A DNA stretch of 64,000 nt from Fusobacterium ulcerans ATCC 49185 (GCF_900683735.1 NZ_LR215979.1:310001-374000); one strand, 5' to 3'; positions 9,193 to 29,920 are shown, counted from the first letter of the stretch. A program made the numbers and translations. The notes: generated by a model from the sequence alone, not told the origin.

Positions 9193-9229
9193 ATGATATC
9201 CTCCTTAATAAATTTATTCCCCTACATTT

Positions 9230-9241: not shown

Positions 9242-9253
9242 TTTTATAATCAG

Positions 9254-9283: not shown

Positions 9284-9398
9284 CAAAAATTTAGAATGAA
9301 TTGATTTAATAATGTAAAAATAGTCTAAAATTCGGTCTATAAAAATTAAAAAATAATATCAAATATTTTTTTATGAAAAATAGAGAAGTGTATAATTA

Positions 9399-9424
9399 TA
9401 GTATTTTTATCGTTAAAAATACTA
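9399..9424. repeat. 11-bp perfect inverted repeat
   Basis: TAGTATTTTTA and its exact complement TAAAAATACTA flank TCGT, upstream of the organic-acid operon promoter and downstream of the comM terminator. It lacks a T tract, so a protein-binding site or DNA cruciform is possible; AT richness makes chance symmetry also possible. Confidence 0.35.
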
Positions 9425-9445
9425 TTTTATATGAAAGGGATAATA

Positions 9446-9486
9446 AAAAAAATCGTAAATAATTATTTAAAATTACTTACGATTTT
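9446..9486 (-). terminator. Terminator after comM/yifB
   Basis: Minus-strand AAAATCGTAAGTAATT pairs with AATTATTTACGATTTT (one G-U pair), followed by a run of T. It lies 12 bases past the stop codon of the yifB-type gene. Confidence 0.85.
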
Positions 9487-9498
9487 GAAATGTGAAAT

Positions 9499-10998
9499 TT
9501 ATTTTTTTCTAAAGGAAACTGCTTCCATTAAATGATATTTTTTTATGTCTTTACAACCTTCTAGATCAGCAATGGTTCTTGCTACTTTCAGAATTTTATC
9601 ATAACCTCTTGCAGATATTTCCATTATTCTCATAGCATTTTTAAAATATTCTTTGTCTTCATCTGCAATCTTACAATATTTTTTTATTTCTTTTTGTCCC
9701 AGATTTCCATTTAAAAGATCACTATTATATCTTTTTCTTTGAATTTCTCGAGCTTTCATCACTCTTTCTTTTATAGTATTTGAATTTTCTGCTTCAGCTG
9801 AATTCATTAGTTCATCTTCTGACAGTCTTCTCATTTCAATATGAATATCAATCCTATCCATGATAGGACCAGAAAGTTTTTTCATATATTTATTTACTTC
9901 ATGTTGAGTACAGGTGCATGAAGCACCTTCATAATAATTCCCACAAAAACATGGATTACTTGTAGCAAGAAGCTGAAATTTACTTAAAAATTCAACTCTG
10001 TATTGAGCTCTTGTAATGGAAACTAAACCATCTTCCAAAGGCTGCCTTAAACTTTCTAAAACACTTCTTGGAAATTCTGCAAGTTCATCTAGTAGTAAGA
10101 CACCATTAGATGCCAAACTTATTTCACCAGGTTTTATTCTTTTTCCTCCACCTATAATTGAAGTAAGTGAACTTGTGTGATGAGGAGAACGAAAAGGTCT
10201 TTGATTAATTATTGGTTTTTTACTGTTAAGCTCACCAGCAACACTGTATATTTTTGTAGATTCAATTATTTCTTCTTCACTCATTGATGGGAGAATAGTT
10301 ATCATTCTTTTAGCAAGCATAGATTTTCCAGAACCAGGACTTCCTATTAATATTATATTGTGTCCACCAGCAGCAGCAATTTCTAATCCTCTTTTTCCTA
10401 GTGCTTGCCCCTTTACTTCTGAGAAATCTATACTATAATCTTTTTCTTCAAGGAATGGTTTTATATTTAAAGATTTAATTTGACCTTTAGAAATAAAATC
10501 AGCAACTTCTCTCAAGGTTGAAACAGGGACAATATCTATCCCTTTGATAAGAGAAGCTTCCTGTACATTATCCTCTGGAATAACTACACCTTTGTATCCT
10601 TTTTCTTTTACCAGAATCATTGTATTTATTATTCCTTTTACTCCTCTGATTTTTCCATCTAGAGAAAGTTCTCCTAGAAAAAGATAATTATCTAATGTAG
10701 AATTTCTATCTCTTACAAATCCCATAGCTACCATTATACCAACAGCTATAGGAAGATCAAATTGAGCTCCTTCTTTTTTTATTCCAGCTGGGGAAAGATT
10801 TACTATTATTTTTTTAGGTTCCATTTTGAAATCACTATTTTTTAATGCAGTTCTTACTCTATCTTTACTTTCTGAGATGGCAGTGTCTCCTAAACCTACT
10901 ATTGAAAAAAATGGAAGTCCACTGCTGATATCTACTTCAGCTTCTACTAAAAAAGGTTCTACTCCTAAATAACTGGAACTTAAAACTCTTATATTCAT
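9499..10998 (-). CDS. comM: YifB/ComM family Mg-chelatase-like AAA+ ATPase
   Basis: A 499-residue protein with an N-terminal Lon-protease-like (ChlI) domain, a central AAA+ Mg-chelatase domain with Walker A GSPGSGKSMLAKR (about residues 218-230) and Walker B VLLLDELAEF (about 299-308), and a C-terminal Mg_chelatase_C region. The loop with CFCGNYYEGASCTCTQHE carries the usual cysteines. ComM homologues are hexameric helicases that promote branch migration of incoming DNA during natural transformation. Length matches the family. The start ATG 10998 has GGAG 11 bases upstream, slightly far. It is separated from the por operon by a terminator and is probably transcribed alone. Confidence 0.93.
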   Translation of the reverse strand: MNIRVLSSSYLGVEPFLVEAEVDISSGLPFFSIVGLGDTAISESKDRVRTALKNSDFKMEPKKIIVNLSPAGIKKEGAQFDLPIAVGIMVAMGFVRDRNSTLDNYLFLGELSLDGKIRGVKGIINTMILVKEKGYKGVVIPEDNVQEASLIKGIDIVPVSTLREVADFISKGQIKSLNIKPFLEEKDYSIDFSEVKGQALGKRGLEIAAAGGHNIILIGSPGSGKSMLAKRMITILPSMSEEEIIESTKIYSVAGELNSKKPIINQRPFRSPHHTSSLTSIIGGGKRIKPGEISLASNGVLLLDELAEFPRSVLESLRQPLEDGLVSITRAQYRVEFLSKFQLLATSNPCFCGNYYEGASCTCTQHEVNKYMKKLSGPIMDRIDIHIEMRRLSEDELMNSAEAENSNTIKERVMKAREIQRKRYNSDLLNGNLGQKEIKKYCKIADEDKEYFKNAMRIMEISARGYDKILKVARTIADLEGCKDIKKYHLMEAVSFRKK

Positions 10999-11029
10999 AA
11001 ATTAAGGTGCTCCTCTGACAATTTTTTTA

Positions 11030-11063
11030 TACAAAAAATGAGTGGGACATTAAGTCCCACTTT
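11030..11063 (-). terminator. Terminator of the por operon
   Basis: AGTGGGAC (11041-11048) and GTCCCACT (11054-11061) form an 8-bp GC-rich stem with a five-base loop. On the minus strand it is followed within two bases by TTTTTT. It lies between porB and the comM gene. Confidence 0.88.
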
Positions 11064-11084
11064 TACATTAAATTTTATAGGTAA

Positions 11085-12023
11085 TTAAAGTTCCTCTCCA
11101 CATCTTTTAAGAAGTCTTTCCCATTTCAAATCCACATCTTTTTGGATTCTATCTATGATATGTCTGTTTTGTGGTTTAAATAGATGCTTGAATCTTCCTT
11201 GTTTTTTCAAGAATTCTTCTACAGGCAGTTTTACTTTTGGTCTGTAGCTTAATTTCCATTCTCCATCTATTACTTCAAATAGTGGCCAGTAGCAAGTTTC
11301 TACTGCCAGTTTACACATTTCCATCAGGTCTTCACCTTCATATCTCCATCCTCTTGGGCATGGTGCTAATATGTTTAGGAATGCTGCTCCCTCTGTATAG
11401 ATTGCTTTTTCTGCTTTCTCATGAAGGTCTTTGAAGTTTCCTATAAATGTTGTTTGAGCAACATATGCCACATTGTGGGCTGATATTACATCTGTAAGAT
11501 CTTTTCTTCCCTGTGGTTTTCCTGCGCTTTCTTTTCCTATTGGAGTTGTAGTTGTATCTGCTCCTATAGGTGTTGCTGATGATCTTTGGATACCTGTATT
11601 CATATATGCTTCATTGTCATAACATACATAAACCATATCATGTCCTCTTTCCATTGCTCCTGAAAGTGATTGGAATCCTATATCATAAGTTCCTCCATCT
11701 CCTCCAAAAGCTATGAATTTATATGATTCATCTATTTTTCCTTTTTTCTTTAATACTTTGTATGCTGTCTGGGCTCCACTTATTGTTGCTGCTGCATTTT
11801 CAAATGCTGAGTGAATAAATGAATCTTTCCATGCTGTATATGGATAAAGGAAAGTTGATACTTCAAGACAGCTTGTTGCACTGCATATTACTGCCTCATC
11901 TTCCTCTTTTAATGCTCTTAATACTCCTCTTACTGCTACTGGTGCTCCACACCCTGCACACATTCTGTGTCCTCCAGTAAGTCTTTCAGGTTTTTCCATT
12001 TCTTTTTTGAAATTATATGCCAT
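11085..12023 (-). CDS. porB: Pyruvate:ferredoxin oxidoreductase, beta subunit
   Basis: A 312-residue TPP-binding subunit of the four-subunit pyruvate synthase type. Cysteines for the proximal [4Fe-4S] cluster are visible in RMCAGCG (Cys22, Cys25), around residues 47-52 and in LAPCPRGW. The TPP motif is GGDGGTYDIGFQS followed by YDNEAYMNTGIQ, characteristic of PorB and different from the KOR-type beta subunit at 2809-3564. The enzyme converts pyruvate and CoA to acetyl-CoA, CO2 and reduced ferredoxin, central in anaerobic amino-acid and sugar fermentation. It is the last gene of porCDAB and precedes a strong terminator. It is complete and typical. Confidence 0.93.
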   Translation of the reverse strand: MAYNFKKEMEKPERLTGGHRMCAGCGAPVAVRGVLRALKEEDEAVICSATSCLEVSTFLYPYTAWKDSFIHSAFENAAATISGAQTAYKVLKKKGKIDESYKFIAFGGDGGTYDIGFQSLSGAMERGHDMVYVCYDNEAYMNTGIQRSSATPIGADTTTTPIGKESAGKPQGRKDLTDVISAHNVAYVAQTTFIGNFKDLHEKAEKAIYTEGAAFLNILAPCPRGWRYEGEDLMEMCKLAVETCYWPLFEVIDGEWKLSYRPKVKLPVEEFLKKQGRFKHLFKPQNRHIIDRIQKDVDLKWERLLKRCGEEL

Positions 12024-12035
12024 ATTCCTTTCCTC

Positions 12036-13214
12036 CTACCCTCTTACACCAAAATGTCTATATGTATCTTTTACTTCTTGATCTTTCTCTGCCAATAGAG
12101 TATTAAAGATCTCTTTTATATGATTTACAGTTATATCTCTTCCTCCAAGTCCATATACATAGTTGATCATTTTTGGTCTTGGGCTGCAGTCATAAAGAGC
12201 TGATCTTACCTCTGCAAATACTGGTCCTCCAGCTGCTGAGAATCCTTCGCATTTATCCATTACTGCTACCATTTTTACATTTTTAAGCGCTTGTGCTATT
12301 TCTTCCATTGGGAATGGTCTGAATACTCTGATTTTTAGAAGTCCAACTTTTTTACCTTCTTTTCTCATTTCTTCTATAGCTGCTTTAGCTGTTCCAGCAG
12401 TTGAGTTGATAACCACTATTGCAACTTCTGCATCATCTAATTTATATTCTTCAAACAGTCCATATTTTCTTCCAGTAAGTTTTTCATATTCTGCTGCTAC
12501 TTCAAGAATTACTTTTTTAGCATTCATCATAGCATGAGCTTGGCTTACTTTATGTTCCATATAGTAAGAAACAATATCATATGGTCCTACTGCTGTAGGT
12601 CTTTTAGCATTTAGAAGATAATCTTCTGGGTTGTATTCTCCAACAAAAGCTTTAGCTTTGTCGTCTTCTAATAATTCTATATTTTCAACAGCATGGCTTG
12701 TGATGAATCCATCTTGACATACCATAACAGGAAGTTGAACATCTGGATGTTCTCCTATTCTGTTAGCTTGAAGCATATTGTCATAAGCTTCTTGATTTGT
12801 TTCACTGTATAGCTGAATCCATCCAGCATCTCTTGCACCCATAGAATCACTATGGTCTGCATTGATATTGATAGGTCCTGTAAGAGCTCTGTTAACACAT
12901 GCTAAAGTTACAGGAAGTCTTGCAGAAGCTACAACATAAAGCATTTCCCACATCAATGCAAGTCCGCATGATGAAGTAGCAGTCATAGTTCTAGCTCCTG
13001 CTGCTTGTGATCCCATTGCAGCCGACATAGCGCTGTGCTCTGATTCTACTGGAATAAATTCACTGTCTACTGATCCATCAGCAACATATTGAGAGAAATA
13101 TTGTGGTATCTCTGTTGATGGAGTGATTGGAAAAGCAGGTACTACATCTGGATTTATTTGTCTCATTGCTATTGCAATAGCTTCGTTTCCTGACATTCTT
13201 TCTCTTATACTCAT
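12036..13214 (-). CDS. porA: Pyruvate:ferredoxin oxidoreductase, alpha subunit
   Basis: A 392-residue alpha subunit. Family stretches include GNEAIAIAMRQINPDVVPAF with FPITPSTEIPQYF near the N-terminus, PVESEHSAMSAAMGS, and TATSSCGLALMWEM. The C-terminal part has the domain II/swivel region with DKCEGFSAAGGPVFAEV, typical of PorA. It pairs with PorB to form the active site. The gene starts at ATG 13214 and ends 12 bases before porB. Codon choice (more GC at third positions and a less extreme AT bias) suggests a highly expressed operon compared with the organic-acid operon next door. Confidence 0.93.
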   Translation of the reverse strand: MSIRERMSGNEAIAIAMRQINPDVVPAFPITPSTEIPQYFSQYVADGSVDSEFIPVESEHSAMSAAMGSQAAGARTMTATSSCGLALMWEMLYVVASARLPVTLACVNRALTGPININADHSDSMGARDAGWIQLYSETNQEAYDNMLQANRIGEHPDVQLPVMVCQDGFITSHAVENIELLEDDKAKAFVGEYNPEDYLLNAKRPTAVGPYDIVSYYMEHKVSQAHAMMNAKKVILEVAAEYEKLTGRKYGLFEEYKLDDAEVAIVVINSTAGTAKAAIEEMRKEGKKVGLLKIRVFRPFPMEEIAQALKNVKMVAVMDKCEGFSAAGGPVFAEVRSALYDCSPRPKMINYVYGLGGRDITVNHIKEIFNTLLAEKDQEVKDTYRHFGVRG

Positions 13215-13230
13215 TAATTCTACCTCCGAA

Positions 13231-13533
13231 CTACTCTTTTATCAATTCTATTGCTTTGAATGGACATGCTTTAACACAAATTCCACATCCTTTGCAATGA
13301 TCCATATCAAACTCTAATCTTTTTCCATCTTTTACAGGTATTGCTGAATCTGGGCAGCAAGGAACACATAGAAGACAGTCAATACATTTATCTCTCAAAA
13401 GAACTGGTTTCATTGATCTCCAGTCCCCTGTTCTGAAGTGCTGAGCACTTCCAGCTTCATAAACTACTCCACCAGGAGTTATATCTCTCCAGCTAATATC
13501 TTCAGTAATTGGTACACCAGCTTTATTTTTCAT
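13231..13533 (-). CDS. porD: Pyruvate:ferredoxin oxidoreductase, delta (ferredoxin) subunit
   Basis: A 100-residue subunit with two [4Fe-4S] motifs, CIDCLLCVPCCP and CKGCGICVKACP, in its C-terminal two thirds. The N-terminal part with WRSMKPVL is typical of PorD. It relays electrons from the TPP site to external ferredoxin. Its ATG overlaps the porC stop by one base (TAATG), showing tight coupling. Order porC-porD-porA-porB is the usual four-subunit arrangement. Confidence 0.94.
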   Translation of the reverse strand: MKNKAGVPITEDISWRDITPGGVVYEAGSAQHFRTGDWRSMKPVLLRDKCIDCLLCVPCCPDSAIPVKDGKRLEFDMDHCKGCGICVKACPFKAIELIKE

Positions 13534-14108
13534 TATTCTTTCACCTCATTCATAGAACGTACTAATGCAGCCATATTTCCTTTTAGTACTTCTGGTTTAC
13601 TTGCAAATTTGTGCGCAAAAGAGTTTTCCATTGCTTCTAGGAAAGCTTTTTCTTCCATAACTCCACTTACTTTTACAACTGCTCCAAGCATAGGAGTGTT
13701 AGGGAAGTTTTTCCCAAGAGTTTCCTCAGAAATAGTTCTTGCATCACAAGTACATACTCTTCCTTTGTATCCTTTTAAAAGAGATTTAAATTCAGAAGCA
13801 GGCTTAGAACTATTGATAATAATAGCTCCATCCTCTTTAAGACCTTTAGTAACATCTACACTTTCAATAAGAGTTTCATCAACAACAACTACAAAATCAG
13901 GTTCATAGATATTAGAGTGAACAGTAACTCTATCTTTAGAGATACGATTGTAAGCGGTAATAGGAGCTCCCATTCTCTCAGGTCCATACTCTGGGAACCC
14001 TTGAACGAACATTCCACCACTGAATGCTGCATCTGCCAAAAGTAAAGAAGCTGTTTTGGCTCCTTGTCCACCTCTTCCATGCCATCTTATTTCAAAAATT
14101 TCTTTCAT
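13533..14108 (-). CDS. porC: Pyruvate:ferredoxin oxidoreductase, gamma subunit
   Basis: A 191-residue gamma subunit beginning with the family signature WHGRGGQGAKTAS (about residues 9-21), followed by FPEYGPERMGAPITAYNR (about 39-56), which is diagnostic for PorC rather than KorC. The gamma subunit is the CoA-binding domain of the complex. It is the first gene of the operon, so the promoter lies in the 550-base region upstream, where an extended -10 element and a pair of direct repeats are seen. The presence of both this enzyme and the KOR-type enzyme means the cell can oxidise at least two classes of 2-oxoacid. Confidence 0.93.
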   Translation of the reverse strand: MKEIFEIRWHGRGGQGAKTASLLLADAAFSGGMFVQGFPEYGPERMGAPITAYNRISKDRVTVHSNIYEPDFVVVVDETLIESVDVTKGLKEDGAIIINSSKPASEFKSLLKGYKGRVCTCDARTISEETLGKNFPNTPMLGAVVKVSGVMEEKAFLEAMENSFAHKFASKPEVLKGNMAALVRSMNEVKE

Positions 14109-19308: not shown

Positions 19309-20499
19309 ATGAATTTTATTTTTATTTCACCAAACTTTCCAAAAAATTATTGGAATTTTTGCAGAGGATTGAAAAATAATGGAGTAAATACTCTAGCAAT
19401 AGGAGAAGAGGAATATTATAGTTTAACAGATGAATTGAGAGGTTCTTTAAATGAGTACTATAAAGTATCTTCACTGGAAAATTATGATGAAGTATATCGT
19501 GCATGCGCATATTTTGCATATAAATATGGGCGTATAGACTGGTTAGAGTCTAATAATGAATACTGGCTTTTAAGAGATGCACAGCTTCGTACAGATTTTA
19601 ATATTAATACAGGACTTAAAAATGATAAGATAGCTGGAATAAAATATAAGAGTGTAATGAAGAAATTTTATGAGAAAGCAGGAGTACCAAGTGCACGTTA
19701 TCATATTGTAACTAATTATGAGGAAGGAAAAGCATTTATAGAGAAAGTGGGATATCCAGTAGTTGTAAAACCTAATAATGGTGTAGGAGCAGCAGCTACA
19801 TATAAATTGATAAATGATATAGAATTGGGATATTTCTATAGGGATCTTCCTCCAGTTGAATATATTATGGAAGAATATGTAAATGGAGAGCTTCTGTCAT
19901 ATGATGGAATAGCTGGAAGAGATAAAGAGATAATATTTGAAACTGCCCATGCATATCCTATTCCAATAATGGATATAGTAAATGAACAGGCAGATGTAAT
20001 GTATTATTCCTATAAAGATATTCCAGAAGATTTAAAGGAAGCAGGAAGAAAAGTAGTACAAGCTTTTGATACTAATAGTCGTTTCTTTCATTGTGAATTT
20101 TTCAGACTTTCAGAAGATAAAAAAGGGCTTGGGAAAAAAGGAGATATAATAGGGCTTGAAGTAAATATGCGTCCACCAGGTGGATATACTCCTGATATGA
20201 TGAATTTTGCAAATGATATAGATGTTTATCAAATATGGGCAAATATGGTAGCATATAATCAAGGATATTTTGATACAGAATCTAGACCATATAATTGTGT
20301 ATATGCAGCTAGAAGAGATGTTCACAGATATGTTTACAGTAAAGAGGAAACATTGGCTAAATATAAAGATAATATAGTAATGAAAGAAAGAATGCCAGAG
20401 ATATTTTCAGTAGCTATGGGAAATGATATGCTTACTGCAAGATTCTGTGATTTGCAGGAATGTTTTGAATTTATTGATTTTTATTTGAAAAAATATTAA
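19309..20499 (+). CDS. ATP-grasp ligase of unknown substrate
   Basis: A 396-residue protein of the ATP-grasp superfamily (carbamoyl-phosphate-synthase-L-like). An N-terminal pre-ATP-grasp domain (MNFIFISPNFP start) is followed by the ATP-binding core: YPVVVKPNNGVGAAATY (about residues 148-164) as the lysine/glycine-rich loop, VEYIMEEYVNGE (about 183-194), and the metal-binding end GLEVNMRPPGG (about 282-292). These enzymes join a carboxylate to an amine, thiol or imino acid through an acyl phosphate. It leads an operon with two alpha/beta-hydrolase esterases and a small acidic protein. Nothing identifies the substrate. The ribosome site GGGGGGAG is 7 bases upstream. It could make or modify a peptide-like metabolite or act as an amino-acid ligase. 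Confidence 0.8.
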   Translation: MNFIFISPNFPKNYWNFCRGLKNNGVNTLAIGEEEYYSLTDELRGSLNEYYKVSSLENYDEVYRACAYFAYKYGRIDWLESNNEYWLLRDAQLRTDFNINTGLKNDKIAGIKYKSVMKKFYEKAGVPSARYHIVTNYEEGKAFIEKVGYPVVVKPNNGVGAAATYKLINDIELGYFYRDLPPVEYIMEEYVNGELLSYDGIAGRDKEIIFETAHAYPIPIMDIVNEQADVMYYSYKDIPEDLKEAGRKVVQAFDTNSRFFHCEFFRLSEDKKGLGKKGDIIGLEVNMRPPGGYTPDMMNFANDIDVYQIWANMVAYNQGYFDTESRPYNCVYAARRDVHRYVYSKEETLAKYKDNIVMKERMPEIFSVAMGNDMLTARFCDLQECFEFIDFYLKKY

Positions 20500-20519
20500 A
20501 ATGTAGGAGGATACAGAAT

Positions 20520-21275
20520 ATGCATACTGCTTATTATAAAGAATATAGCCATATACTGGAAAGAGAAATGGAATTTACAGTATATGGACATAGTGGAAAA
20601 CCTTGTATAGTTTTTCCTGCGCAAGATGGAAGATTTTATGATTTTTTTAATTTTGGAATGGTAGATGCTTCTTCAAAATTTATTGAAGAGGGAAAATTAC
20701 AACTTTTTTGTGTAGATGGAATTGACTGGGAAAGCTGGTCTCAAATAGGTGGAGATTATCATTGGAGAATAATGCAGCATGAAAAATGGTTCAATTATAT
20801 AACTGAAGAGGCTGTTCCAAGATTTAGAGAAATTCATGGAGATACTTCTGGAGAATATTACAGAGGAAAATTTTTAACAACAGGATGCAGTATGGGAGCT
20901 TATCATGCATTGAACTTTTTCCTTCGTCGTCCAGATATTTTTGATGGTGTGATTGCCATGAGCGGACTTTATCATGCAGGATACTTTTTTCCAAATTACA
21001 ACCATGAGGTAATTTATAATAACTCTCCAGTTGATTATATGAAAAATATGCCATGGAATCATTATTATTTAAATATGTATAGAAACTCAAAAATAATTCT
21101 TTGCTGTGGACAAGGAAGATGGGAAAAAGAATGTATAGAGGATACCAATAGTTTAAAAGAAAGTTTTAAACGTCTACAAGTACCAGTATGGACAGATTTT
21201 TGGGGATATGATGTAGATCATGACTGGCCTTGGTGGAGAATACAGTTTCCATATTTTTTAGATATAGTACTATAG
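20520..21275 (+). CDS. Alpha/beta-hydrolase esterase (esterase D/enterochelin-esterase-like), first copy
   Basis: A 251-residue alpha/beta hydrolase. The nucleophile elbow is GCSMGAYHA (serine near residue 123), and the C-terminal DVDHDWPWW holds the histidine of the triad. There is no signal peptide, so it acts in the cytoplasm. It is spaced 20 bases from the ATP-grasp gene and 19 from a second hydrolase, with a ribosome site before each, so they are one operon. This protein belongs to a subgroup with the WESW/GDYHWRIMQHE region that I have seen named only generically as esterase. The likely role is hydrolysis or transfer of an ester or thioester linked to the ATP-grasp product (inference). 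Confidence 0.8.
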   Translation: MHTAYYKEYSHILEREMEFTVYGHSGKPCIVFPAQDGRFYDFFNFGMVDASSKFIEEGKLQLFCVDGIDWESWSQIGGDYHWRIMQHEKWFNYITEEAVPRFREIHGDTSGEYYRGKFLTTGCSMGAYHALNFFLRRPDIFDGVIAMSGLYHAGYFFPNYNHEVIYNNSPVDYMKNMPWNHYYLNMYRNSKIILCCGQGRWEKECIEDTNSLKESFKRLQVPVWTDFWGYDVDHDWPWWRIQFPYFLDIVL

Positions 21276-21294
21276 TTTACTAAAGGAGCTTACC

Positions 21295-22053
21295 ATGGTT
21301 TTAAAACATGAAATTTTTATTGAACCTTTTGGTTTGAAGAGATTTTTACATATATATATTCCAGATAATATCAAAGAAGGGGAAAGATTTCCTGTAATGT
21401 ATATGTTTGATGGACACAATCTATTTTTTGACTCAGAAGCAACTTATGGAAAATCTTGGGGAATAAAAGATTTCTTGGATAATTCCAATATAAGAATGAT
21501 AGTTGTAGGATTAGAATGCAACCATGAAGGAAATAAGAGACTTTGGGAATTTTCTCCTTATTCTTTTAAAGATAAATATTTTGGAACTGTCAAAGGATAT
21601 GGTAAAATATTAATAGATTGGATGGCTGATTCTCTAAAACCAATGATAGATGCTAATTTTCCAACACTGCCTGAAAGAGAATTTACTGGTCTTGGAGGAA
21701 GCTCTATGGGAGGTCTTATGTCAGTCTATGGAACTGCTGTGAGATCAGATATATTTTCTATGGGAGCTTGTCTTTCCCCTTTTTATGATCATATATTTAA
21801 AAAATTAGTAGAAGAACTTTCAGCAGCAGAAGTAAATCCAGCTACAAAATTTTATATCAGTTGGGGAAGATATGAAGTACATTCTAAAAAACAGTTAGCT
21901 GTAGAATCTGAAAAAAATCTTATTATAAGCAGAATATTGACTTTTAAAGGAGTTCAGGTATTTCCTCATCTAATGGTAGAAGGTGGACATAATGAAGCTT
22001 CATGGGAAACAGAAAATCCTATATGGATGACTGAACTGGGGCTCATAAAATAA
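21295..22053 (+). CDS. Alpha/beta-hydrolase esterase (COG2819-like), second copy
   Basis: A 252-residue hydrolase of the Fes/YbbA-like (putative esterase) family. The nucleophile motif is GGSSMGGLMS (serine near residue 140), and the histidine lies in VEGGHNEASWE. An N-terminal beta-sandwich-like start with RFLHIYIPDN and MYMFDGHNLFFD is typical of this family, many members of which cleave siderophore or acylated sugar esters. It is distinct in sequence from the preceding esterase, so the pair is not a recent duplication. Both have full catalytic residues. The gene is preceded by AAAGGAGC and followed 20 bases later by a small gene in the same operon. Confidence 0.8.
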   Translation: MVLKHEIFIEPFGLKRFLHIYIPDNIKEGERFPVMYMFDGHNLFFDSEATYGKSWGIKDFLDNSNIRMIVVGLECNHEGNKRLWEFSPYSFKDKYFGTVKGYGKILIDWMADSLKPMIDANFPTLPEREFTGLGGSSMGGLMSVYGTAVRSDIFSMGACLSPFYDHIFKKLVEELSAAEVNPATKFYISWGRYEVHSKKQLAVESEKNLIISRILTFKGVQVFPHLMVEGGHNEASWETENPIWMTELGLIK

Positions 22054-22073
22054 TATTAAATATGGAGGGGTAT

Positions 22074-22352
22074 ATGTATTATAGTATTTTTTTAGAAGTG
22101 GAAAATAATCCTGAAATAAAGAAATGGCTCAATATGAATACTAAAGATGAAATTATTGAAATATTAAAAGGATTGCCTGATGAAGGAGTAAAAAAATTAC
22201 AAATAGTTGAAACTTCTACTGAAACTACTGGAGAATATGATCTTATAAAAAGATTTATTAAGGAAACTCAAATTTTAGGAGAGAAATTTTTTAACGAAAA
22301 ATATCCTTTTTATTATGCTAAAGATATTACTGAAGAGATTATAAAAAAATAA
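22074..22352 (+). CDS. Small acidic hypothetical protein ending the ATP-grasp operon
   Basis: A 92-residue soluble protein without recognised motif. It starts MYYSIFLEVENNPE at ATG 22074, with GGAGG 5 bases upstream; an ATG at 22062 overlaps this site. Lysines and glutamates alternate, and the predicted pattern is helix-rich with no membrane segment. Its position suggests a partner or chaperone of the ATP-grasp enzyme, but this is only context. A terminator follows directly. Confidence 0.6.
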   Translation: MYYSIFLEVENNPEIKKWLNMNTKDEIIEILKGLPDEGVKKLQIVETSTETTGEYDLIKRFIKETQILGEKFFNEKYPFYYAKDITEEIIKK

Positions 22353-22363
22353 TAGTTATTACC

Positions 22364-22447
22364 AGAGGATGACTTGCAGGCAGAAATATAATTTTAGAAT
22401 TTTTTATTTCTAAAGTTTAATCTAGCTTTTATGTCATCCTCTTTTTT
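22364..22447 (+). terminator. Two-stem terminator with long closing arm
   Basis: AGAGGATGAC (22364-22373) pairs perfectly with GTCATCCTCT (22433-22442), followed by TTTTTT. The 59-base interval contains a second smaller stem (TTTAGAA/TTCTAAA), so the structure is branched rather than a simple hairpin. It separates the ATP-grasp operon from the lipase-like gene. Confidence 0.65.
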
Positions 22448-22474
22448 AAAATTGAAAGGGGAGAAGAGGAAAAG

Positions 22475-23827
22475 ATGATACAACATTTGATAAAAAAATT
22501 ATTTATGATTTTTTACATACCTGCTGCTGCTAATATTCCTTTGCTCATATATTTTTATTATAAGAATGACGGAAATATTTTGCTGTCAGTCTTAATTAGT
22601 TTAATAGTATTTATTCTATGGATGTATATTAATATTTTTCCATATAAAAAAGAAGAATATACAAGAAAACGATTGAGAATAATGATAGGTGGGAGAATTT
22701 TATGTTTTTATTCTTTTTATGGTTTTTTAACTCAAATATGTATAATTATATTTCTATATCCTTTGTTGAGAGAAAAAATAGCTAATAGTGAAATATTATG
22801 GCTCAATGGAATATATGCTCTAGGAATAAATTTTTTTCTTTTTCTTAATGGAATTATTCGAATATTTTTTACTTCAAAATGGTTAAGTTTTAGAAAGAGA
22901 GTTCTACTGATACTTACTATTTGGATACCAATAATAAATATTTTAGTTCTTTGCTATATTTTGAGAATTATAAAATGGGAGTATGAATTTGAATGTTATA
23001 AAGTTTCTTTGAGGGAAACAAGAGCAGAATCAGATATGTGCAAGACTAAATATCCTATAATACTTGTACATGGAGTAGGATTCAGAGATTTTAGGCACTT
23101 TAATTATTGGGGTCGTATTCCAAGAGAATTGATAAAGTATGGAGCATCTATTTATTACGGAAATCAAGAAGCTTTTGGGACTATTGAATACAATGGAGAG
23201 GATATTAAGAAAAAAATATTAGAAGTAATAGAGAGAACAGGGTGCGAAAAAGTAAATATAATAGCACATTCTAAAGGTGGATTGGATTCAAGATATGCTA
23301 TAAGTATATTGGGGATGGATAAGTATACAGCTTCCCTTACAACTATAAGTACTCCACATAGAGGGTGTCTTTTTGTCGATAAAATGTGCAGACTGCCTGA
23401 AAAATTGCATAGAAGAGTTGCTAAGTTCTATGATAGTATGTTTAAAAAGTTGGGAGATAAAAATCCAGATTTTTATGGAGCAATTCATCAATTCACTACT
23501 TATAACAGTAAGGAGTTTAATGAAAAAGTAATAGATTCTCCAGAAGTTTATTATCAAAGTTATATATCTGTAATGAAAGATTGTTTAAGTGATGTTTTGC
23601 TTACTATACCATATTGTTTTATCAAGAAAGTAGATGAAGAAAATGATGGTTTGGTAAGTATTTCTTCTGCCAAGTGGGGAAATTTTAAAGGGGTTATAAG
23701 AAATAGATATCATAGAGGAATATCTCATGGAGATATTATAGATTTGAAAAGACAGGATTATAAAGGATTTGATGTAATAGAATTTTATGTACAGCTTGTT
23801 TCTGAATTAAAGGAAATGGGATTTTAA
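22475..23827 (+). CDS. Membrane-anchored lipase-like alpha/beta hydrolase
   Basis: A 450-residue protein. The first 170 or so residues hold about four hydrophobic segments; the remainder is an alpha/beta hydrolase with oxyanion motif ILVHGVGFRDF, nucleophile elbow IAHSKGGLDSRY, and later acidic and histidine residues (ENDGLVS and ISHGD) that can complete the triad. This resembles bacterial triacylglycerol lipases (PGAP1/class I type), but fused to a membrane domain. A role in membrane-lipid or acyl-ester turnover is plausible. The ribosome site GAGG is 7 bases upstream of the ATG. It lies between two terminators and is probably a single-gene unit. Confidence 0.72.
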   Translation: MIQHLIKKLFMIFYIPAAANIPLLIYFYYKNDGNILLSVLISLIVFILWMYINIFPYKKEEYTRKRLRIMIGGRILCFYSFYGFLTQICIIIFLYPLLREKIANSEILWLNGIYALGINFFLFLNGIIRIFFTSKWLSFRKRVLLILTIWIPIINILVLCYILRIIKWEYEFECYKVSLRETRAESDMCKTKYPIILVHGVGFRDFRHFNYWGRIPRELIKYGASIYYGNQEAFGTIEYNGEDIKKKILEVIERTGCEKVNIIAHSKGGLDSRYAISILGMDKYTASLTTISTPHRGCLFVDKMCRLPEKLHRRVAKFYDSMFKKLGDKNPDFYGAIHQFTTYNSKEFNEKVIDSPEVYYQSYISVMKDCLSDVLLTIPYCFIKKVDEENDGLVSISSAKWGNFKGVIRNRYHRGISHGDIIDLKRQDYKGFDVIEFYVQLVSELKEMGF

Positions 23828-23980: not shown

Positions 23981-26203
23981 TTATATGTCTTTGATTTTTT
24001 CAGAGATGTATCTGCTAGGACTCATTTCTTCTTTCCAGTCAGGATCTGAGATATTGAAATTTTTTCCATATATTTCAAGAAGTCTTTTTAAAGAATTTCT
24101 TGGAATGTAAGTATCTATTCCCATAAATTTAATTTCTTTCAATGTAGAATTTGAAAGCTTATATGCTGAAATAATTCCATTTTTATCTTCAAGATAGCAT
24201 ACGACTTTATCATTTTCTCTATCAAAAAGGAATATCTCTATTTCAATTCCTTTATACTCATACTTGATGTTTTTAAGTCCTTCATTTTTTAGACTTAATG
24301 AAGAAATTCTTTTAAACCCTACACTCTCTATATCTATTATGAACTTAGGAATAAGTTCCTCTTTCATTATTCCAATGTCAAAGTTAATATCATGTCCTAT
24401 AAAATTATTTTCTCTAATTTTTCCTAGAAGAGTTCCAAATTCAAGCCAATATTTTACTCCCGTTTTTTGAGAAATTTTATTCAATTTTTCAAGAACTTCC
24501 TTACCAGTTAAAAGTAAATTTTCTCCTTGCTTTTCTTTCTTTATTGAATTTTTTCTCTTTTTATTATAGCTTCTATTTCTTATATATTTTGTTGAAAGAT
24601 CAAAAACTACTTTGAAAAATATATTTACAAGAATAATCATTACAGATATTGCAGCAGCAGCTCCTATATCTCCAGCATCATTTTTACTTATCATCATTAC
24701 AGAAATAAGCCTTGTTTTGGTTGTATAAAGAAAAATAACTGCTGAAATAGTTATCATAGAATTTATAAAATAATATGAAAAACTTTCAATGATGGAATCT
24801 ATAGATAAAGGAATTATAACTTTAAAAATAGTTCTATACCATGATACTCCCATTATGTTAGATATAGTTTCATACTCACTGTCTAAAGTCTTCAATCTTG
24901 CAGTTATAGTCAAAAAAGGTGTTGCAAAAAAATGAACTATATTTGCTAATATAATTATTCCAAAGCTTCCATATAGAAAATTCAGAATATTATTCTTAGA
25001 GTTAAAGAAGAAAATATATGCAAGCCCTATTGTTAGTCCAGGAAGAGCATTAGGGAGGATAGAAAGAAAATATCCTATTTTTCTGATAACAATATAATTT
25101 TTTTCTCTCTCAACTACATATGCTGTAAGGAAGCATAAAATAGTTCCAAGTATTGCAGAGAAAACTGAAACAAGAATACTGTTGCCAAATATTTTCCAGA
25201 TGCTTTCACCCATTATTGTAAAATTATATGATTTAAAAGATAAAGTCATATCATAAGGCCATGTTTTTACAAGAGAGGCTAAGATAACTATTCCAAAGAA
25301 AGATATTATAATTAAACTTAGAATATAGTTAAAAAGTTTAAAAAAGATATCTCTTGTTTTATTTTCTTTTATAATATATTTAGTAGACTTTGAATCTATT
25401 TTTGAGCTTTTGCTTTTGATGATAATATCAAATATAAATGCAAGAAAAGCAGGAATTATAAGGAGTATTCCAACAGCTGATCCCATAGAGAAATTTTGTT
25501 GTCCTATTACCTGTTTAAATATATCAGTAGCAAGAACATTATAATTTCCACCAACTACTTTTGGAGCTCCAAAGTCTGTAAAGCTCAAAGTAAAACCAGA
25601 GAAAAAGCAAGTTATTAGAGTGTATTTAATATTGGGAATAGTTATTGTAAAAAATTGTTTTAATTTGCTTATTCCCATTATTTCTGCCATTTCATATTTT
25701 CTATAATCTTCTGAATCAAAAGCTAGTACGAGCATAAAAAAAAGTACTGGAAATATAAAAATAGTTTCTGCAAAAACTATTCCCCAGAATCCGTATATAG
25801 AAATTGAAAGATTAAGAGCTTTTGTTATAATCCCTTGCCTTCCAAAAAGATATATAAGTGCAATACCATGTGTCATAGTTGGAGAAAATAAAGGCAAAAG
25901 AGCAATTCCTTTTAAAAGAGATTTTCCTCTCATATTACTTCTATTTATTCCATATGAAAAAAGAAAAGCAAGAATTATTGTAAAGATAGTTACAGTTATA
26001 GAAACTGCCAAACTATTAGTAAGAGAACTCGCTGTAACTGGGCTGCTAAAATATTCAACAAAGTTTTTTAAACCAATATAATTGCCACTCTTTCCTTGAA
26101 AAGCTTTTATAAAAAGATTGAATATAGGAAAAATTATGGAAATAACAAGAAAAAGAACTAAAACTGAAGACAAGACTATTTTTATAAATTTATCTTTTTT
26201 CAT
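23981..26203 (-). CDS. ABC transporter double permease fused to a LicD-type phosphotransferase domain
   Basis: A 740-residue protein. Residues 1 to about 545 form two binding-protein-dependent permease halves (about 12 membrane segments) with EAA loops near 171-193 and 447-467, as in putative 2-aminoethylphosphonate or iron-type fused permeases. After a lysine-rich linker (about 546-560) comes a cytoplasmic LicD/fukutin-like domain: YWLEFGTLLGKIRENN (585-600), the acidic HDINFDIG (604-611) and the C-terminal IYGKNFNISDPDWK. LicD proteins transfer phosphocholine or similar groups from CDP-activated donors to glycans. The frame is continuous, so this is a genuine fusion. It is the last gene of an operon with the ATPase, binding protein and cytidylyltransferases. 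I infer coupling of import to transfer of the imported headgroup. Confidence 0.85.
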   Translation of the reverse strand: MKKDKFIKIVLSSVLVLFLVISIIFPIFNLFIKAFQGKSGNYIGLKNFVEYFSSPVTASSLTNSLAVSITVTIFTIILAFLFSYGINRSNMRGKSLLKGIALLPLFSPTMTHGIALIYLFGRQGIITKALNLSISIYGFWGIVFAETIFIFPVLFFMLVLAFDSEDYRKYEMAEIMGISKLKQFFTITIPNIKYTLITCFFSGFTLSFTDFGAPKVVGGNYNVLATDIFKQVIGQQNFSMGSAVGILLIIPAFLAFIFDIIIKSKSSKIDSKSTKYIIKENKTRDIFFKLFNYILSLIIISFFGIVILASLVKTWPYDMTLSFKSYNFTIMGESIWKIFGNSILVSVFSAILGTILCFLTAYVVEREKNYIVIRKIGYFLSILPNALPGLTIGLAYIFFFNSKNNILNFLYGSFGIIILANIVHFFATPFLTITARLKTLDSEYETISNIMGVSWYRTIFKVIIPLSIDSIIESFSYYFINSMITISAVIFLYTTKTRLISVMMISKNDAGDIGAAAAISVMIILVNIFFKVVFDLSTKYIRNRSYNKKRKNSIKKEKQGENLLLTGKEVLEKLNKISQKTGVKYWLEFGTLLGKIRENNFIGHDINFDIGIMKEELIPKFIIDIESVGFKRISSLSLKNEGLKNIKYEYKGIEIEIFLFDRENDKVVCYLEDKNGIISAYKLSNSTLKEIKFMGIDTYIPRNSLKRLLEIYGKNFNISDPDWKEEMSPSRYISEKIKDI

Positions 26204-26211
26204 AAAATCTC

Positions 26212-27177
26212 CTAAATACTATTTTTTTCATTTAATTTGATATATAGAGAATCATTAATTTTGAGATTCAGCTTTTCTTTTTCTTTAGATAGTATATCAA
26301 TATAGATATTATCTCCAAATAGTTCTAGTGTAATTCTATAAAAAGCACCTCTAAACTCAATATTTTTTATAATACCCTTATATGTTTCTTCTTTTTCATC
26401 TGTAAAGTATTCTACATCTTCAGGTCTTATAGTGTAGATATCATTGTTTTTATCAGTGATAAAATTTATTTTTCCTATAAAATCTGCTACAAATATATCT
26501 TTAGGTTTGCTGTAAATTTCTTCTGGAGTTCCAAACTGAACAATTTCTCCACCATTGATAATAGCAATTTTATCTCCCATTGTAAGAGCTTCCTCTTGAT
26601 CATGAGTTACCATAATTGTGGTTATTTTTAATTTCTGCTGAATTTCTCTTATTTCTTTTCTTAAAGATTCTCTTACTTTTGCATCTAGAGCTGAAAGAGG
26701 TTCATCAAGTAGTAAAATATTAGGTTCAAGAGCTAAAGCTCTGGCAAGGGATACTCTTTGCTGTTGACCTCCGCTCATTTCATCAGGGTATTTAGAAGTT
26801 ATGTGGTCAAGTCCTACCATTTTAAGAACTTCCATAATTTTGTTTTTTCTTTCATGTTTATCTTTTACTTTATTTTTTAATCCATATTCTATATTTTCAA
26901 ATACTGTCATATTGGGAAAGAGAGCATATGACTGAAATACCATACTTAAATTTCTTTGTGAAGGTTCCAAAGTAGTTATTTCTTTTCCATTAACCAAGAT
27001 ACTTCCAGAATCAAGTTTTTCAAGTCCAGCTATTATACGAAGTAAAGTTGTTTTACCGCAACCACTTGGTCCTAGAAAACATATAAATTCTCCTTTTTCT
27101 ATTTCTAGATCAATACCTTTTAGAACTTCTACTTTATTAAATTGTTTTTTTACTTTTTTTATAGCTAAATAAGGCAT
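26212..27177 (-). CDS. ABC transporter ATP-binding protein (2-aminoethylphosphonate/polyamine-iron type)
   Basis: A 322-residue ATPase: Walker A GPSGCGKTT (about residues 37-45), Q-loop VFQSYALFPN, signature MSGGQQQRVSLARAL, Walker B ILLLDEPLSALD and a switch histidine in MVTHDQ. A C-terminal TOBE-like domain begins near residue 235. It powers the permease encoded next. The start is ATG 27177, with GGAG 6-7 bases upstream; a longer frame to 27195 would overlap the binding-protein gene. Spacing of 1 base to the binding protein and 8 to the permease shows one operon. Confidence 0.92.
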   Translation of the reverse strand: MPYLAIKKVKKQFNKVEVLKGIDLEIEKGEFICFLGPSGCGKTTLLRIIAGLEKLDSGSILVNGKEITTLEPSQRNLSMVFQSYALFPNMTVFENIEYGLKNKVKDKHERKNKIMEVLKMVGLDHITSKYPDEMSGGQQQRVSLARALALEPNILLLDEPLSALDAKVRESLRKEIREIQQKLKITTIMVTHDQEEALTMGDKIAIINGGEIVQFGTPEEIYSKPKDIFVADFIGKINFITDKNNDIYTIRPEDVEYFTDEKEETYKGIIKNIEFRGAFYRITLELFGDNIYIDILSKEKEKLNLKINDSLYIKLNEKNSI

Positions 27178-27178
27178 T

Positions 27179-28198
27179 TTATTCTCCTTTACCATATCTA
27201 GTTTCCCATTCTTTAAGTAATCTCTCTCTATTATCTGAAGCCCATTTGAAATCTATTTTAGCTAATTTTTCTTTGAAATCTGCTGGGTAACCTTCAAGCT
27301 TAGTATTTACACCTTTATATGAAACTAGTCCAATATTTTTAGAATATTCTTCCATCATTTTTTTAGAAAGAGTCCAATTAATAAAATCAACAGCTTCTGG
27401 TTTAATTGTATCTTTTTTTACAAGAGCAATACCTTCCATATCCCATCCATATCCTTCAGCAGGAAGAATAGTGACTATAGATTCATTAGTTTTTCCAAGT
27501 CTTATACTTTCACTGTCCATTCCAACTCCAATTAGTTGTTCTCCTTGCATAGCCATTTTAACTGGAGCACTACCAGAATGAGTGTATTGAGATATATTTT
27601 TGTGAAGCTGATCCATATATTCCCATGCTTTTTCTTCACCCCAGATACTTATCCAACCTAATATAGTAAGATAACCAGTTCCAGAAGAAGCTGGATTAGG
27701 CATAACTATTTCTTTAGAATATTTTTCATCAAGAAGATCTATATATGATGTAGGAATAGGTAAATTTTTAGCTGCAAGTTCATACTTATTAGCTGTAATA
27801 GCAGAAGTCCAAGCAGTCATCCCTGTCCATTGCGGTTTTTCACTGATAGAATCAATGTAGGCAGGATCAATATTTGTAAGCCATTCACTTTTTAATTCAG
27901 CTAATCTCCCTTGTTTAGCAAGATCAATGAGGTTTATACTTGCCATTCCCCATAAGACATCAGCTACAGGGTTATTTCCTTCAGCAATTACTTTAGCAGC
28001 AATAGCTCCTTGAGAATCTCTTATTATATTTAGTTCTACATTTGGAAAATCTGTTTTATACATTTCAATATAATGGTTCAGATATTCCTCTTCAAGACCA
28101 GTATAAACATTTAAAACAGTTTTGTTTTCTTTACTTCCACATCCAAAAAGAAATGCTGAAAGAATAAAAAGTATAGAAATTTTAAATAGTTTTTTCAT
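27179..28198 (-). CDS. ABC substrate-binding lipoprotein, putative 2-aminoethylphosphonate type
   Basis: A 339-residue lipoprotein with signal peptide and lipobox FLFGC (Cys20), exported and tethered on the periplasmic side of the inner membrane. The mature part matches the putative 2-aminoethylphosphonate binding family: VYTGLEEEYL near the start, RDSQGAIAAKVIAEGNNPVA, ADVLWGMASINL, SSGTGYLTILGWI and QYTHSGSAPVKMAMQGE. The family is related to ferric-ion binding proteins, so iron is the chief alternative, but the neighbouring cytidylyltransferase and LicD domain favour a phosphonate or phospho-amino alcohol. Gene order binding protein-ATPase-permease fits an importer. Confidence 0.85.
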   Translation of the reverse strand: MKKLFKISILFILSAFLFGCGSKENKTVLNVYTGLEEEYLNHYIEMYKTDFPNVELNIIRDSQGAIAAKVIAEGNNPVADVLWGMASINLIDLAKQGRLAELKSEWLTNIDPAYIDSISEKPQWTGMTAWTSAITANKYELAAKNLPIPTSYIDLLDEKYSKEIVMPNPASSGTGYLTILGWISIWGEEKAWEYMDQLHKNISQYTHSGSAPVKMAMQGEQLIGVGMDSESIRLGKTNESIVTILPAEGYGWDMEGIALVKKDTIKPEAVDFINWTLSKKMMEEYSKNIGLVSYKGVNTKLEGYPADFKEKLAKIDFKWASDNRERLLKEWETRYGKGE

Positions 28199-28200
28199 AA

Positions 28201-28929
28201 TTAATTTTCTCCTTTTTCTAATAGTTTAGGATAAATAGTTTCCATTACTCTATTTAACTGGAACTCATCATCTATTTCAGACCAGATAATACCATCTACT
28301 CTTTTACAAAATATTTTTCTTTCTTTTGCTATTTTTTCCATACAGTATTCATAACCTAATTTAAGATTTTTTTCATCTTCATATTTTTTAAACATGAGCT
28401 GACATAATTCATTAGATAGTTTTTGTAATCCAGTAAGTTCTCCATACTCTCCTTTGATTTCAAAAAGATTGAAAGTGAGTTTTCCAATACCATTGTCTAT
28501 GATCTCATAGTAATAATCATCAGACATTTTTTTGTCTTCTGATAAGAGAATAGTATCTTTTTCTGGGGAAGCAACCAATATATCAAGACAGTTTTTTTCA
28601 TAGATAAGATCACCTTCTAAAAGGAGAATATCTTCATCCCCAATTAGCTCTTTAGCACAATAGAAACTTCCCATACTGCTTGTATTAGCATAGTTATTGT
28701 TTTTTATTGTAACAACACTGCTGTATTTCTTTTTTAAAGGTTCAAAGAAATAATCTAAGTGTCCTGTTACTAATATTATTTTTTTAATTCCTGAGTCTAG
28801 GAGCTTCTCTATTGACCTTTCAATGAGAGACAATCCATTTATTGCTAAAAAAGGTTTTGGAATTTCATCATTAGTTATTCCCCTAAGTCTTGTTCCCATA
28901 CCTGCAACAAGTATTACTGCTGTTTTCAT
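28201..28929 (-). CDS. LicC/PntC-like CTP:phospho(no)-headgroup cytidylyltransferase
   Basis: A 242-residue nucleotidyltransferase of the LicC class. It begins KTAVILVAGMGTRLRGITNDE, giving the glycine-rich GMGTR loop and the lysine in IPKPFL; NNYANTSSMGSF and LLEGDLIYEK match the cytidylyltransferase core, and the C-terminal WSEIDDEFQL holds the metal-binding aspartates. LicC makes CDP-choline, and the related PntC makes CMP-2-aminoethylphosphonate. The adjacent importer of the aminoethylphosphonate type makes the latter attractive, but residues that would discriminate were not tested. It overlaps the upstream gene by four bases (ATGA) and precedes the binding-protein gene by two. Cytoplasmic. 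Confidence 0.85.
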   Translation of the reverse strand: MKTAVILVAGMGTRLRGITNDEIPKPFLAINGLSLIERSIEKLLDSGIKKIILVTGHLDYFFEPLKKKYSSVVTIKNNNYANTSSMGSFYCAKELIGDEDILLLEGDLIYEKNCLDILVASPEKDTILLSEDKKMSDDYYYEIIDNGIGKLTFNLFEIKGEYGELTGLQKLSNELCQLMFKKYEDEKNLKLGYEYCMEKIAKERKIFCKRVDGIIWSEIDDEFQLNRVMETIYPKLLEKGEN

Positions 28930-29867
28930 AAATCTTTCTCCTTTTTGTATAAACTTTTAACTATATTATTTTTAACGTATTCATATTGTTTTTGATTATC
29001 TATCTCTCCCCAAATATTTTCTTTAGAGTATATACATTTTAAATCAGAAAAAATATTTTTATCTAAAAAACTATATTCATAAAAAAATAATTTGTTTTCT
29101 ATTTGTGTGAACTTATCCAACATTTTTAAATATGAACTATACTTTAATTTGCTGATTCCTATAAGTTCACCTGAAATCTTCTCAAGGCTGTATTTACCTT
29201 TGGAAATATTTAAGAGTTCACCTTTTTTAGTAGTAACATAGAGAGAATCTTCTTTATCTGATATAGATGTATCTATCATAGTAACATTCTTATCTTTAGA
29301 ATTCAGCAGAAGTGAGATTATATTTTCTTCAAAAATGAGGTCTCCTTCCAAAAGAATAAAATCTTCCTGCAGATATTTTCTTAAAAGATATAGAGAATAC
29401 ATATTTCCAGTAGTCTTATATTTTTTGTTTTCTACTATTTTAATATTTGGATATTTTTTAGCTAATTTTTTATAGTATTCTGCTTTATAACCAGCTGCAA
29501 TTATTATTTCATCTATATTATATTTGGACAGCAATTTTATAGTTCTTTCAATAAGCGTGGAATCAAATATTTCAAGAAATCCTACAGGTTTATCAAAATC
29601 TAAAGTTTCTCCAGCAGCTAAAATAACTGCAGTTTTTATTGAATTATTATTGGAATTTAAAAGCTCATTTCCAAGATATGTGATAATATATTTAGTTTTT
29701 CTATATGAAATATTTTCTTTTATAAGATAGCCTTCATGTAAAAGAGAATTAATATATTTATTGACAGAACCAAGAGAAATATTTAAATATTCAGATATTT
29801 TTCGTTGACTGATTATATTATTTTCATGTATAAGAGATATAATTTTTTCTTTTATCTGGATCACCAC
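28926..29867 (-). CDS. Winged-helix/nucleotidyltransferase fusion, likely operon regulator
   Basis: A protein of about 313 residues. Residues 1-70 form a winged helix (ISQRKISEYLNISLGSVNKYINSLLHEGYL region), followed by a LicC-like nucleotidyltransferase fold starting KTAVILAAGETLDFDKPVGF. The usual GxGTR loop is altered to AAGETLDFDKP, while LLEGDLIFEE and the C-terminal WGEIDNQKQY are kept. It may be an active second cytidylyltransferase with its own repressor domain or a sensor that lost catalysis. It starts the operon, at a GTG (29867 or 29864) within GGTGGTG, an unusual start/ribosome-site arrangement. Direct repeats across the promoter upstream are candidate binding sites for it. Confidence 0.75.
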   Translation of the reverse strand: MVIQIKEKIISLIHENNIISQRKISEYLNISLGSVNKYINSLLHEGYLIKENISYRKTKYIITYLGNELLNSNNNSIKTAVILAAGETLDFDKPVGFLEIFDSTLIERTIKLLSKYNIDEIIIAAGYKAEYYKKLAKKYPNIKIVENKKYKTTGNMYSLYLLRKYLQEDFILLEGDLIFEENIISLLLNSKDKNVTMIDTSISDKEDSLYVTTKKGELLNISKGKYSLEKISGELIGISKLKYSSYLKMLDKFTQIENKLFFYEYSFLDKNIFSDLKCIYSKENIWGEIDNQKQYEYVKNNIVKSLYKKEKDL

Positions 29868-29880
29868 CTTATATAAAAAA

Positions 29881-29920
29881 TGAACGATTATATTTTTACA
29901 CTGTGAACGATTTTTGTCAA
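29881..29920 (-). promoter_or_regulatory. Promoter with paired operator repeats for the LicD/ABC operon
   Basis: On the minus strand TTGACA (29915-29920) precedes TATAAT (29887-29892) by 22 bases, longer than optimal; a TAAAAA 16 bases from the -35 is an alternative. TGAACGAT (plus-strand reading) occurs at 29881 and 29904, 23 bases apart, overlapping the -10 and the spacer, so a regulator bound there would block the promoter. The 29921-30140 interval is AT-rich and holds no gene. Confidence 0.5.

What the first reader, a model, noticed from the sequence alone, without database searches (positions are those of the whole stretch)
23981..29867. Import, CTP activation and transfer of a phospho/phosphono headgroup encoded in one operon, with a permease-LicD fusion
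A complete ABC importer of the putative 2-aminoethylphosphonate class is encoded with a LicC/PntC-like cytidylyltransferase, and its permease carries a C-terminal LicD-type transferase domain in one continuous 740-codon frame. Classical lic systems use a single-subunit choline permease and a separate LicD. Here the transporter itself may hand its cargo to activation and transfer, coupling uptake to decoration of a surface glycan with 2-aminoethylphosphonate or phosphocholine.
Basis: partly seen in the sequence, partly recalled or inferred. Interest (0 to 1): 0.88.

Follow-up and report, generated by a model that had tools for sequence, protein, structure and literature searches.

The report
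Aminoethylphosphonate importer fused to degenerate LicD
A bacterium that looks like a Fusobacterium relative has an operon that appears to import a small phosphonate and activate it with CTP for surface decoration; its importer membrane protein is really fused to a LicD-type transferase domain, but that domain has lost key metal-binding residues, so it more likely senses than transfers.

Summary
A tight five-gene minus-strand operon encodes a PhnS2T2U2-type importer, a PntC-like cytidylyltransferase and a 740-residue permease whose C-terminus is a LicD domain. The fusion is real: four species of one genus (90% identity or more) and one of another genus (68%) carry it without a stop, and the LicD part is under strong purifying selection. 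The predicted domain matches the FKRP catalytic domain best (Z 15.5).

Import and activation are supported, with 2-aminoethylphosphonate (AEP) favoured over choline. The cytidylyltransferase keeps the PntC-type Glu pair. The genome has no PEP mutase and no choline kinase above cut-off. In one relative the operon sits inside an O-antigen-type locus.

The 'transfer' step is doubtful. All five fused domains have Asn where FKRP needs Asp362 (Asp in 129 of 130 stand-alone rows) and Glu for Asp416; one also lost Asp364. The first gene is a winged-helix protein with a degenerate PntC domain. Twin ATCGTTCA sites at the operon promoter occur once in each of the four genomes with that gene.

Best reading: an AEP-salvage surface-decoration operon in which two degenerate pathway enzymes act as sensors. 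The sensor role is inferred. In the other genus the fused domain is the only LicD found, so unusual catalysis is not excluded.

The parts
28926..29867 (-). Winged-helix regulator with degenerate PntC-like domain (313 aa, GTG start): HTH_24 at residues 5-48, NTP-transferase-like domain from residue 77
   Evidence: Pfam HTH_24 E 9e-8 and NTP_transf_3 E 2e-8; best PDB sequence Tde PntC-AEPT 6pd1 E 6e-31 over residues 77-311; the GXG(T/S)R loop and the Lys of PK are missing (AAGETLDFDKPVGF) while both AEP-type Glu positions remain, in four species
28201..28929 (-). PntC-like CTP:AEP cytidylyltransferase (242 aa)
   Evidence: 6pd1 E 5e-44 against LicC 1jyk E 1e-13; E105 and E194 align with Tde-PntC E104 and E196; R14 and K25 conserved (one search read with PMC6697681)
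27179..28198 (-). Lipoprotein-type substrate-binding protein, phnS2-like (339 aa)
   Evidence: TIGR03261 375 bits against cut-off 393; shares PASSGTG, HSGS and GWDxE motifs with the PhnX/PhnW-linked paralogue of the same genome
26212..27195 (-). ABC ATPase, PhnT2-like (327 aa)
   Evidence: TIGR03265 445 bits against cut-off 458
24569..26203 (-). Permease part of the fusion, residues 1-545, PhnU2 family
   Evidence: TIGR03262 645 bits against cut-off 593
24509..24568 (-). Lys/Arg-rich linker, residues 546-565, after the last membrane helix; suggests that the LicD domain is cytoplasmic
   Evidence: Sequence and hydropathy; full-length model shows one continuous helix 512-581 at moderate to low confidence
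23984..24508 (-). LicD/FKRP-fold domain, residues 566-740
   Evidence: PF04991, AlphaFold2 pLDDT 90.7, best structural match FKRP Z 15.5, dN/dS 0.016-0.079 against same-genus relatives
24377..24391 (-). Degenerate motif D605-I-N607-F-D609 (FKRP D360, D362, D364)
   Evidence: N607 in 5 of 5 fusions, Asp in 129 of 130 stand-alone rows; FKRP mutational data PMC6965139
24236..24238 (-). E656, equivalent of FKRP D416
   Evidence: Glu in 5 of 5 fusions, Asp in 125 of 130 stand-alone rows
29881..29912 (-). Twin ATCGTTCA direct repeats, 23 bp apart: candidate operator
   Evidence: Conserved in four species; one site per genome in the four genomes with the winged-helix gene, none in G033, reversed control 0; 0 of 100 shuffles of the window reach two copies
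29892..29920 (-). Candidate sigma-70 promoter TTGACA-17-AAAAAT of the operon
   Evidence: Consensus scan 10 of 12 (46 sites found against 39.7 expected, so weak alone); TTGACA invariant in four species

Best explanation
This is an AEP-salvage operon for decorating a surface glycan. The lipoprotein-type binding protein, ATPase and permease import AEP or a close analogue (inferred from families and context). The PntC-like enzyme joins it to CTP to give CMP-AEP (inferred from residues and nearest solved relative). A transferase elsewhere puts AEP on the O-antigen: in this genome, one of three LicDs with an intact motif in an O-antigen-type locus (inferred). The LicD domain fused to the permease keeps the fold but has lost metal-binding aspartates (shown), so it most likely binds the CMP-AEP-type product in the cytoplasm and adjusts import through the last membrane helix (inferred). 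The winged-helix protein, whose PntC-like domain has lost the CTP/PPi loop but kept the headgroup Glu pair (shown), most likely controls the operon at the twin ATCGTTCA sites in response to AEP or CMP-AEP (inferred; the sites overlap the promoter, which suggests repression).
For: Families. PntC: 6pd1 E 5e-44 and the Glu pair (PMC6697681). No PEP mutase in this or nine related genomes while the model rings in control genomes, so AEP would have to come from outside. No choline kinase above cut-off. A separate PhnS2T2U2-PhnX-PhnW cluster in the same genome, its binding protein, permease, PhnX and PhnW above curated cut-offs, so the organism meets AEP. In G033 the PntC-importer-fusion genes sit among glycosyltransferases and CDP- and GDP-sugar genes. 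Fused LicD: fold shown, catalytic residues lost in 5 of 5, FKRP residues D360, D362, D364 and D416 reported as critical by mutation, yet the domain is constrained. Regulator degeneracy and an operator found only in genomes with that gene. Precedents for regulatory domains on transporters: MetNI, ModABC, and LacS with a IIA-like domain (PMC10710835).
Against: No substrate, CTP or product binding has been measured. In G033 the fused domain is the only PF04991 match in a 99% complete genome, so either it is catalytic after all or the transferase there is of another family. The binding protein and ATPase fall just below the AEP equivalog cut-offs. In G026 the pntC-like frame is disrupted, so activation is dispensable there or the assembly is wrong. 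The permease tree does not resolve whether the fusion arose once.
Confidence: 0.5

Rival explanations
1. One reading: the fused LicD domain is a working transferase that uses CMP-AEP (or CDP-choline) delivered by the adjacent cytidylyltransferase, so import, activation and transfer are physically coupled.
For: LicD fold and the other conserved LicD positions are kept; strong purifying selection; in G033 it is the only LicD found in the genome and lies inside the O-antigen-type locus.
Against: The FKRP D362 equivalent is Asn in all five fusions and the D416 equivalent is Glu; G033 also lost D364; mutation of these residues in FKRP is reported to damage activity.
Confidence: 0.22
2. The importer brings in a related molecule (phosphoethanolamine or another small phosphorylated amine) and the cytidylyltransferase makes a CDP-linked donor from it.
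For: Binding protein and ATPase are slightly below the AEP equivalog cut-offs; the nearest PDB sequences include an entry named a pyridoxal-5-phosphate binding protein.
Against: The permease passes the PhnU2 cut-off; the Glu pair matches the AEP enzyme rather than LicC; the binding-protein motifs are shared with the PhnX/PhnW-linked paralogue.
Confidence: 0.2
3. A classical phosphocholine (Lic-1) pathway in another guise: choline uptake, CDP-choline, LicD.
For: LicC-like and LicD-like domains together; the F. nucleatum genome paper reports a lic operon in one subspecies (PMC1924603).
Against: No LicB-type permease in the operon, no choline kinase above cut-off in the genome, importer of the AEP class, Glu not Asp at the two positions that differ in LicC.
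Confidence: 0.05

Closest known systems
Phosphonyl tailoring (Pnt) pathway with PntC (Rice et al. 2019, PMC6697681)
   Same: CTP activation of AEP by a LicC-like cytidylyltransferase with a Glu pair; surface glycan setting
   Different: Known clusters make AEP with PEP mutase; here PEP mutase is absent and an importer stands in its place
Lic-1 phosphocholine pathway (LicABCD; PMC10434233)
   Same: Logic of uptake, cytidylyl activation and LicD-type domain in one operon
   Different: ABC importer instead of LicB, no LicA above cut-off, LicD fused to the permease and missing catalytic aspartates
PhnS2T2U2 AEP importers with PhnX and PhnW
   Same: Same transporter families; a catabolic copy is in the same genome
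   Different: Linked to activation, not degradation; permease carries an extra domain
FKRP / LicD family (PMC6965139)
   Same: Fold and most conserved positions
   Different: Two to three of the four essential aspartates replaced; attached to a permease
Transporters with regulatory domains: LacS with a IIA-Glc-like domain, MetNI C2, ModABC (PMC10710835)
   Same: Cytoplasmic domain on an importer that adjusts transport
   Different: The domain here resembles a pathway enzyme of the LicD type; regulation untested

Membership tests
PhnS2T2U2 AEP ABC importer | Permease above TIGR03262 cut-off | tested here: met
   645 against 593 bits
PhnS2T2U2 AEP ABC importer | Binding protein and ATPase above TIGR03261 and TIGR03265 cut-offs | tested here: not met
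   375 against 393 and 445 against 458, best family match in both cases
PhnS2T2U2 AEP ABC importer | Transports AEP | not testable with these tools
   needs binding or uptake assay
PntC cytidylyltransferase | GXG(T/S)RX4-8PK motif | tested here: inconclusive
   GMGTR and PK are present, R14 and K25 aligned with Tde-PntC R15 and K25, but nine residues lie between R and PK, one more than the published spacing of 4-8
PntC cytidylyltransferase | Glu pair at the AEP amine (Tde E104, E196; Asp in LicC) | tested here: met
   E105 and E194 (PMC6697681)
PntC cytidylyltransferase | Prefers AEP over phosphocholine | not testable with these tools
   enzyme assay needed
LicD / FKRP transferase | NTase-type LicD fold | tested here: met
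   PF04991 23.0 against 22.6 bits; FKRP Z 15.5
LicD / FKRP transferase | Asp at FKRP 362, 364 and 416 positions | tested here: not met
   N607, D609 (Asn in G033) and E656
LicD / FKRP transferase | Transfers a phospho- or phosphono-group from a CDP/CMP donor | not testable with these tools
   enzyme assay needed
Lic-1 phosphocholine pathway | Choline kinase LicA in the genome | tested here: not met
   PF01633 only two hits of 17-18 bits, cut-off 29; kinases of other families not searched
Pnt pathway with own AEP synthesis | PEP mutase | tested here: not met
   PF13714 absent, model rings in control genomes

The most novel reading that the evidence does not exclude
Two degenerate enzymes of one pathway have been turned into sensors of that pathway: a LicD-type domain fused to an ABC permease that reads CMP-AEP and sets the rate of AEP import, and a PntC-type domain fused to a winged helix that reads AEP or CMP-AEP and sets transcription, so that surface decoration with a scavenged phosphonate is controlled by its own activated intermediate.
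Probability: 0.38. Interest if true: 0.75.

Novelty: new variant of a known kind. Interest (0 to 1): 0.6.

Why it matters
Described phosphonate surface tailoring starts from PEP mutase (PMC6697681); an import-driven route without it would mean that genomes counted as lacking phosphonate synthesis may still carry phosphonates on their surface, taken from neighbours or diet. The permease-LicD fusion, with metal ligands lost but under strong constraint, is a clean case for testing how a pathway enzyme domain might become a transporter regulator.

Tried and rejected
Sequencing error as cause of the fusion: rejected, five genomes. Fusion outside this family: none among the 78 loci fetched in the genome-contig scan, none on plasmids (686 records with a match, none covering 80% of the query), none in viral contigs. 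These scans used short peptide patterns or one collection each, and records near the window's genome may be left out, so absence is not proven. Choline route: weakened. Tree of permeases to place the fusion event: unresolved. Intrinsic terminator: none found. The full-length model is of moderate confidence (pLDDT 71) and was used only for the continuous helix. Paper searches for AEP import coupled to surface activation found nothing relevant in the held library; subscription journals are mostly not held.

Full report
The finding concerns 23981-29867 of a 64 kb window that lies at 310001-374000 of a 3.84 Mb single-contig genome. Five minus-strand genes overlap or lie at most 8 nt apart: a winged-helix protein, a cytidylyltransferase, a binding protein, an ATPase and a 740-residue permease with a C-terminal extension.

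The permease passes the PhnU2 cut-off; the binding protein and ATPase have PhnS2 and PhnT2 as best families but fall a few percent short of their cut-offs. The C-terminal extension reaches Pfam LicD over a short stretch only, and its sequence finds FKRP in the PDB. I predicted the domain from an alignment of 30 sequences: mean pLDDT 90.7, and the FKRP catalytic domain stands above every other match (Z 15.5 against 12.4 for the next family). So the LicD fold is well supported.

The fusion is real. The same frame is found in three further species of the genus and in one species of another genus, G033, with no stop inside. dN/dS in the LicD part is 0.016-0.079 between the window and its same-genus relatives, lower than in the permease part of the same pairs. 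Searches of bacterial genomes, plasmids and viral contigs gave no fusion elsewhere, within the limits stated under tried and rejected.

Substrate. The cytidylyltransferase is closer to PntC of Treponema denticola (6pd1, E 5e-44) than to LicC (1jyk, E 1e-13). Rice et al. (PMC6697681) report that Glu104 and Glu196 are placed to contact the AEP amine in PntC, where LicC has Asp; the window protein has Glu at both (E105, E194) and keeps the arginine and lysine of the nucleotide site. Its spacing between that arginine and the PK pair is nine residues, one more than the published consensus. PEP mutase, which installs the C-P bond in described phosphonate synthesis, is absent from this genome and nine relatives while the model rings in control genomes. 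Choline kinase is not found above cut-off. The same genome has a second, unfused PhnS2T2U2 cluster with phosphonatase PhnX and transaminase PhnW; its binding protein, permease, PhnX and PhnW all pass their cut-offs. The window operon thus looks like an anabolic paralogue of a catabolic AEP uptake system. In G033 the cytidylyltransferase, importer and fusion lie within a long stretch of glycosyltransferase, CDP-hexose and GDP-sugar genes (the outer genes were named from their sequence beginnings, by eye), which ties the operon to a surface glycan.

In FKRP three conserved aspartates (362, 364, 416) and Asp360 are reported as critical or indispensable (PMC6965139). In the fused domains Asp360 is kept, Asp362 is Asn in all five, Asp416 is Glu in all five, and G033 also has Asn for Asp364. 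Of 130 stand-alone LicD rows, 129 keep Asp at 362 and 125 at 416 (some rows are the same protein entered twice, and the set was gathered with patterns that do not include these positions). A domain with lost metal ligands under strong constraint is most simply a binding, not a catalytic, domain. Against this, G033 has no other LicD, so unusual catalysis remains possible. In the window's genome three LicDs with the intact motif lie in an O-antigen-type locus and could use the CMP donor.

Regulation. The first gene joins a winged helix to a PntC-like domain in which the GXG(T/S)R loop and the PK lysine are gone while both Glu positions remain, in four species. Proteins of the same build with a similar loop and a further C-terminal part that looks kinase-like by eye occur in Bacillus relatives near LicD, so this type of protein is wider than this family. 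Twin ATCGTTCA repeats, 23 bp apart, overlap the candidate operon promoter and are conserved in four species in an otherwise diverging spacer. The pair occurs once in each of the four genomes that have the winged-helix gene and not in G033, where no such gene was seen in the operon. That is good evidence of a local operator, though binding is untested.

Verdict. Import plus activation: likely. Fusion: shown. Fold: well supported. Transfer by the fused domain: doubtful. A sensor role for both degenerate domains is my preferred reading, by analogy with regulated importers such as LacS, MetNI and ModABC (PMC10710835), and is inferred, not shown.

Noticed in passing
L058 (G000:C1:689000-708000), about 7867-13580: PhnS2T2U2-PhnX-PhnW cluster in the same genome: AEP uptake and degradation, paralogous to the window operon.
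   Followed up: yes
L064:644-2557 and L069:12290-14179: Bacillus-group proteins with a winged helix, a degenerate cytidylyltransferase-like domain (AAGQRKDFSKPAGL in L064) and a further C-terminal part that looks kinase-like by eye, near LicD genes: possibly a wider family of lic regulators.
   Followed up: partly
L026:8059-8786 (G026): The pntC-like gene of this relative reads as two partial frames, while the importer and fusion frames are intact.
   Followed up: partly
L060:2995-6818 and L029:2046-6002: Cytidylyltransferase fused to a class I/II aminotransferase domain, with an ornithine-cyclodeaminase-like gene and DUF1015, near LicD genes, in genomes without PEP mutase: perhaps a donor made another way.
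   Followed up: no
L053 and L054 (G050, G049): Unfused PhnU2-type permeases 59-61% identical to the permease part of the fusion, with binding protein and ATPase but no LicD or PntC seen nearby; substrate unclear.
   Followed up: partly
window 19309-23827: Neighbouring plus-strand genes: an ATP-grasp protein, two putative esterases and a membrane-anchored lipase-like protein; conserved beside the operon in two relatives (L025, L026). Relation to the operon unknown.
   Followed up: no
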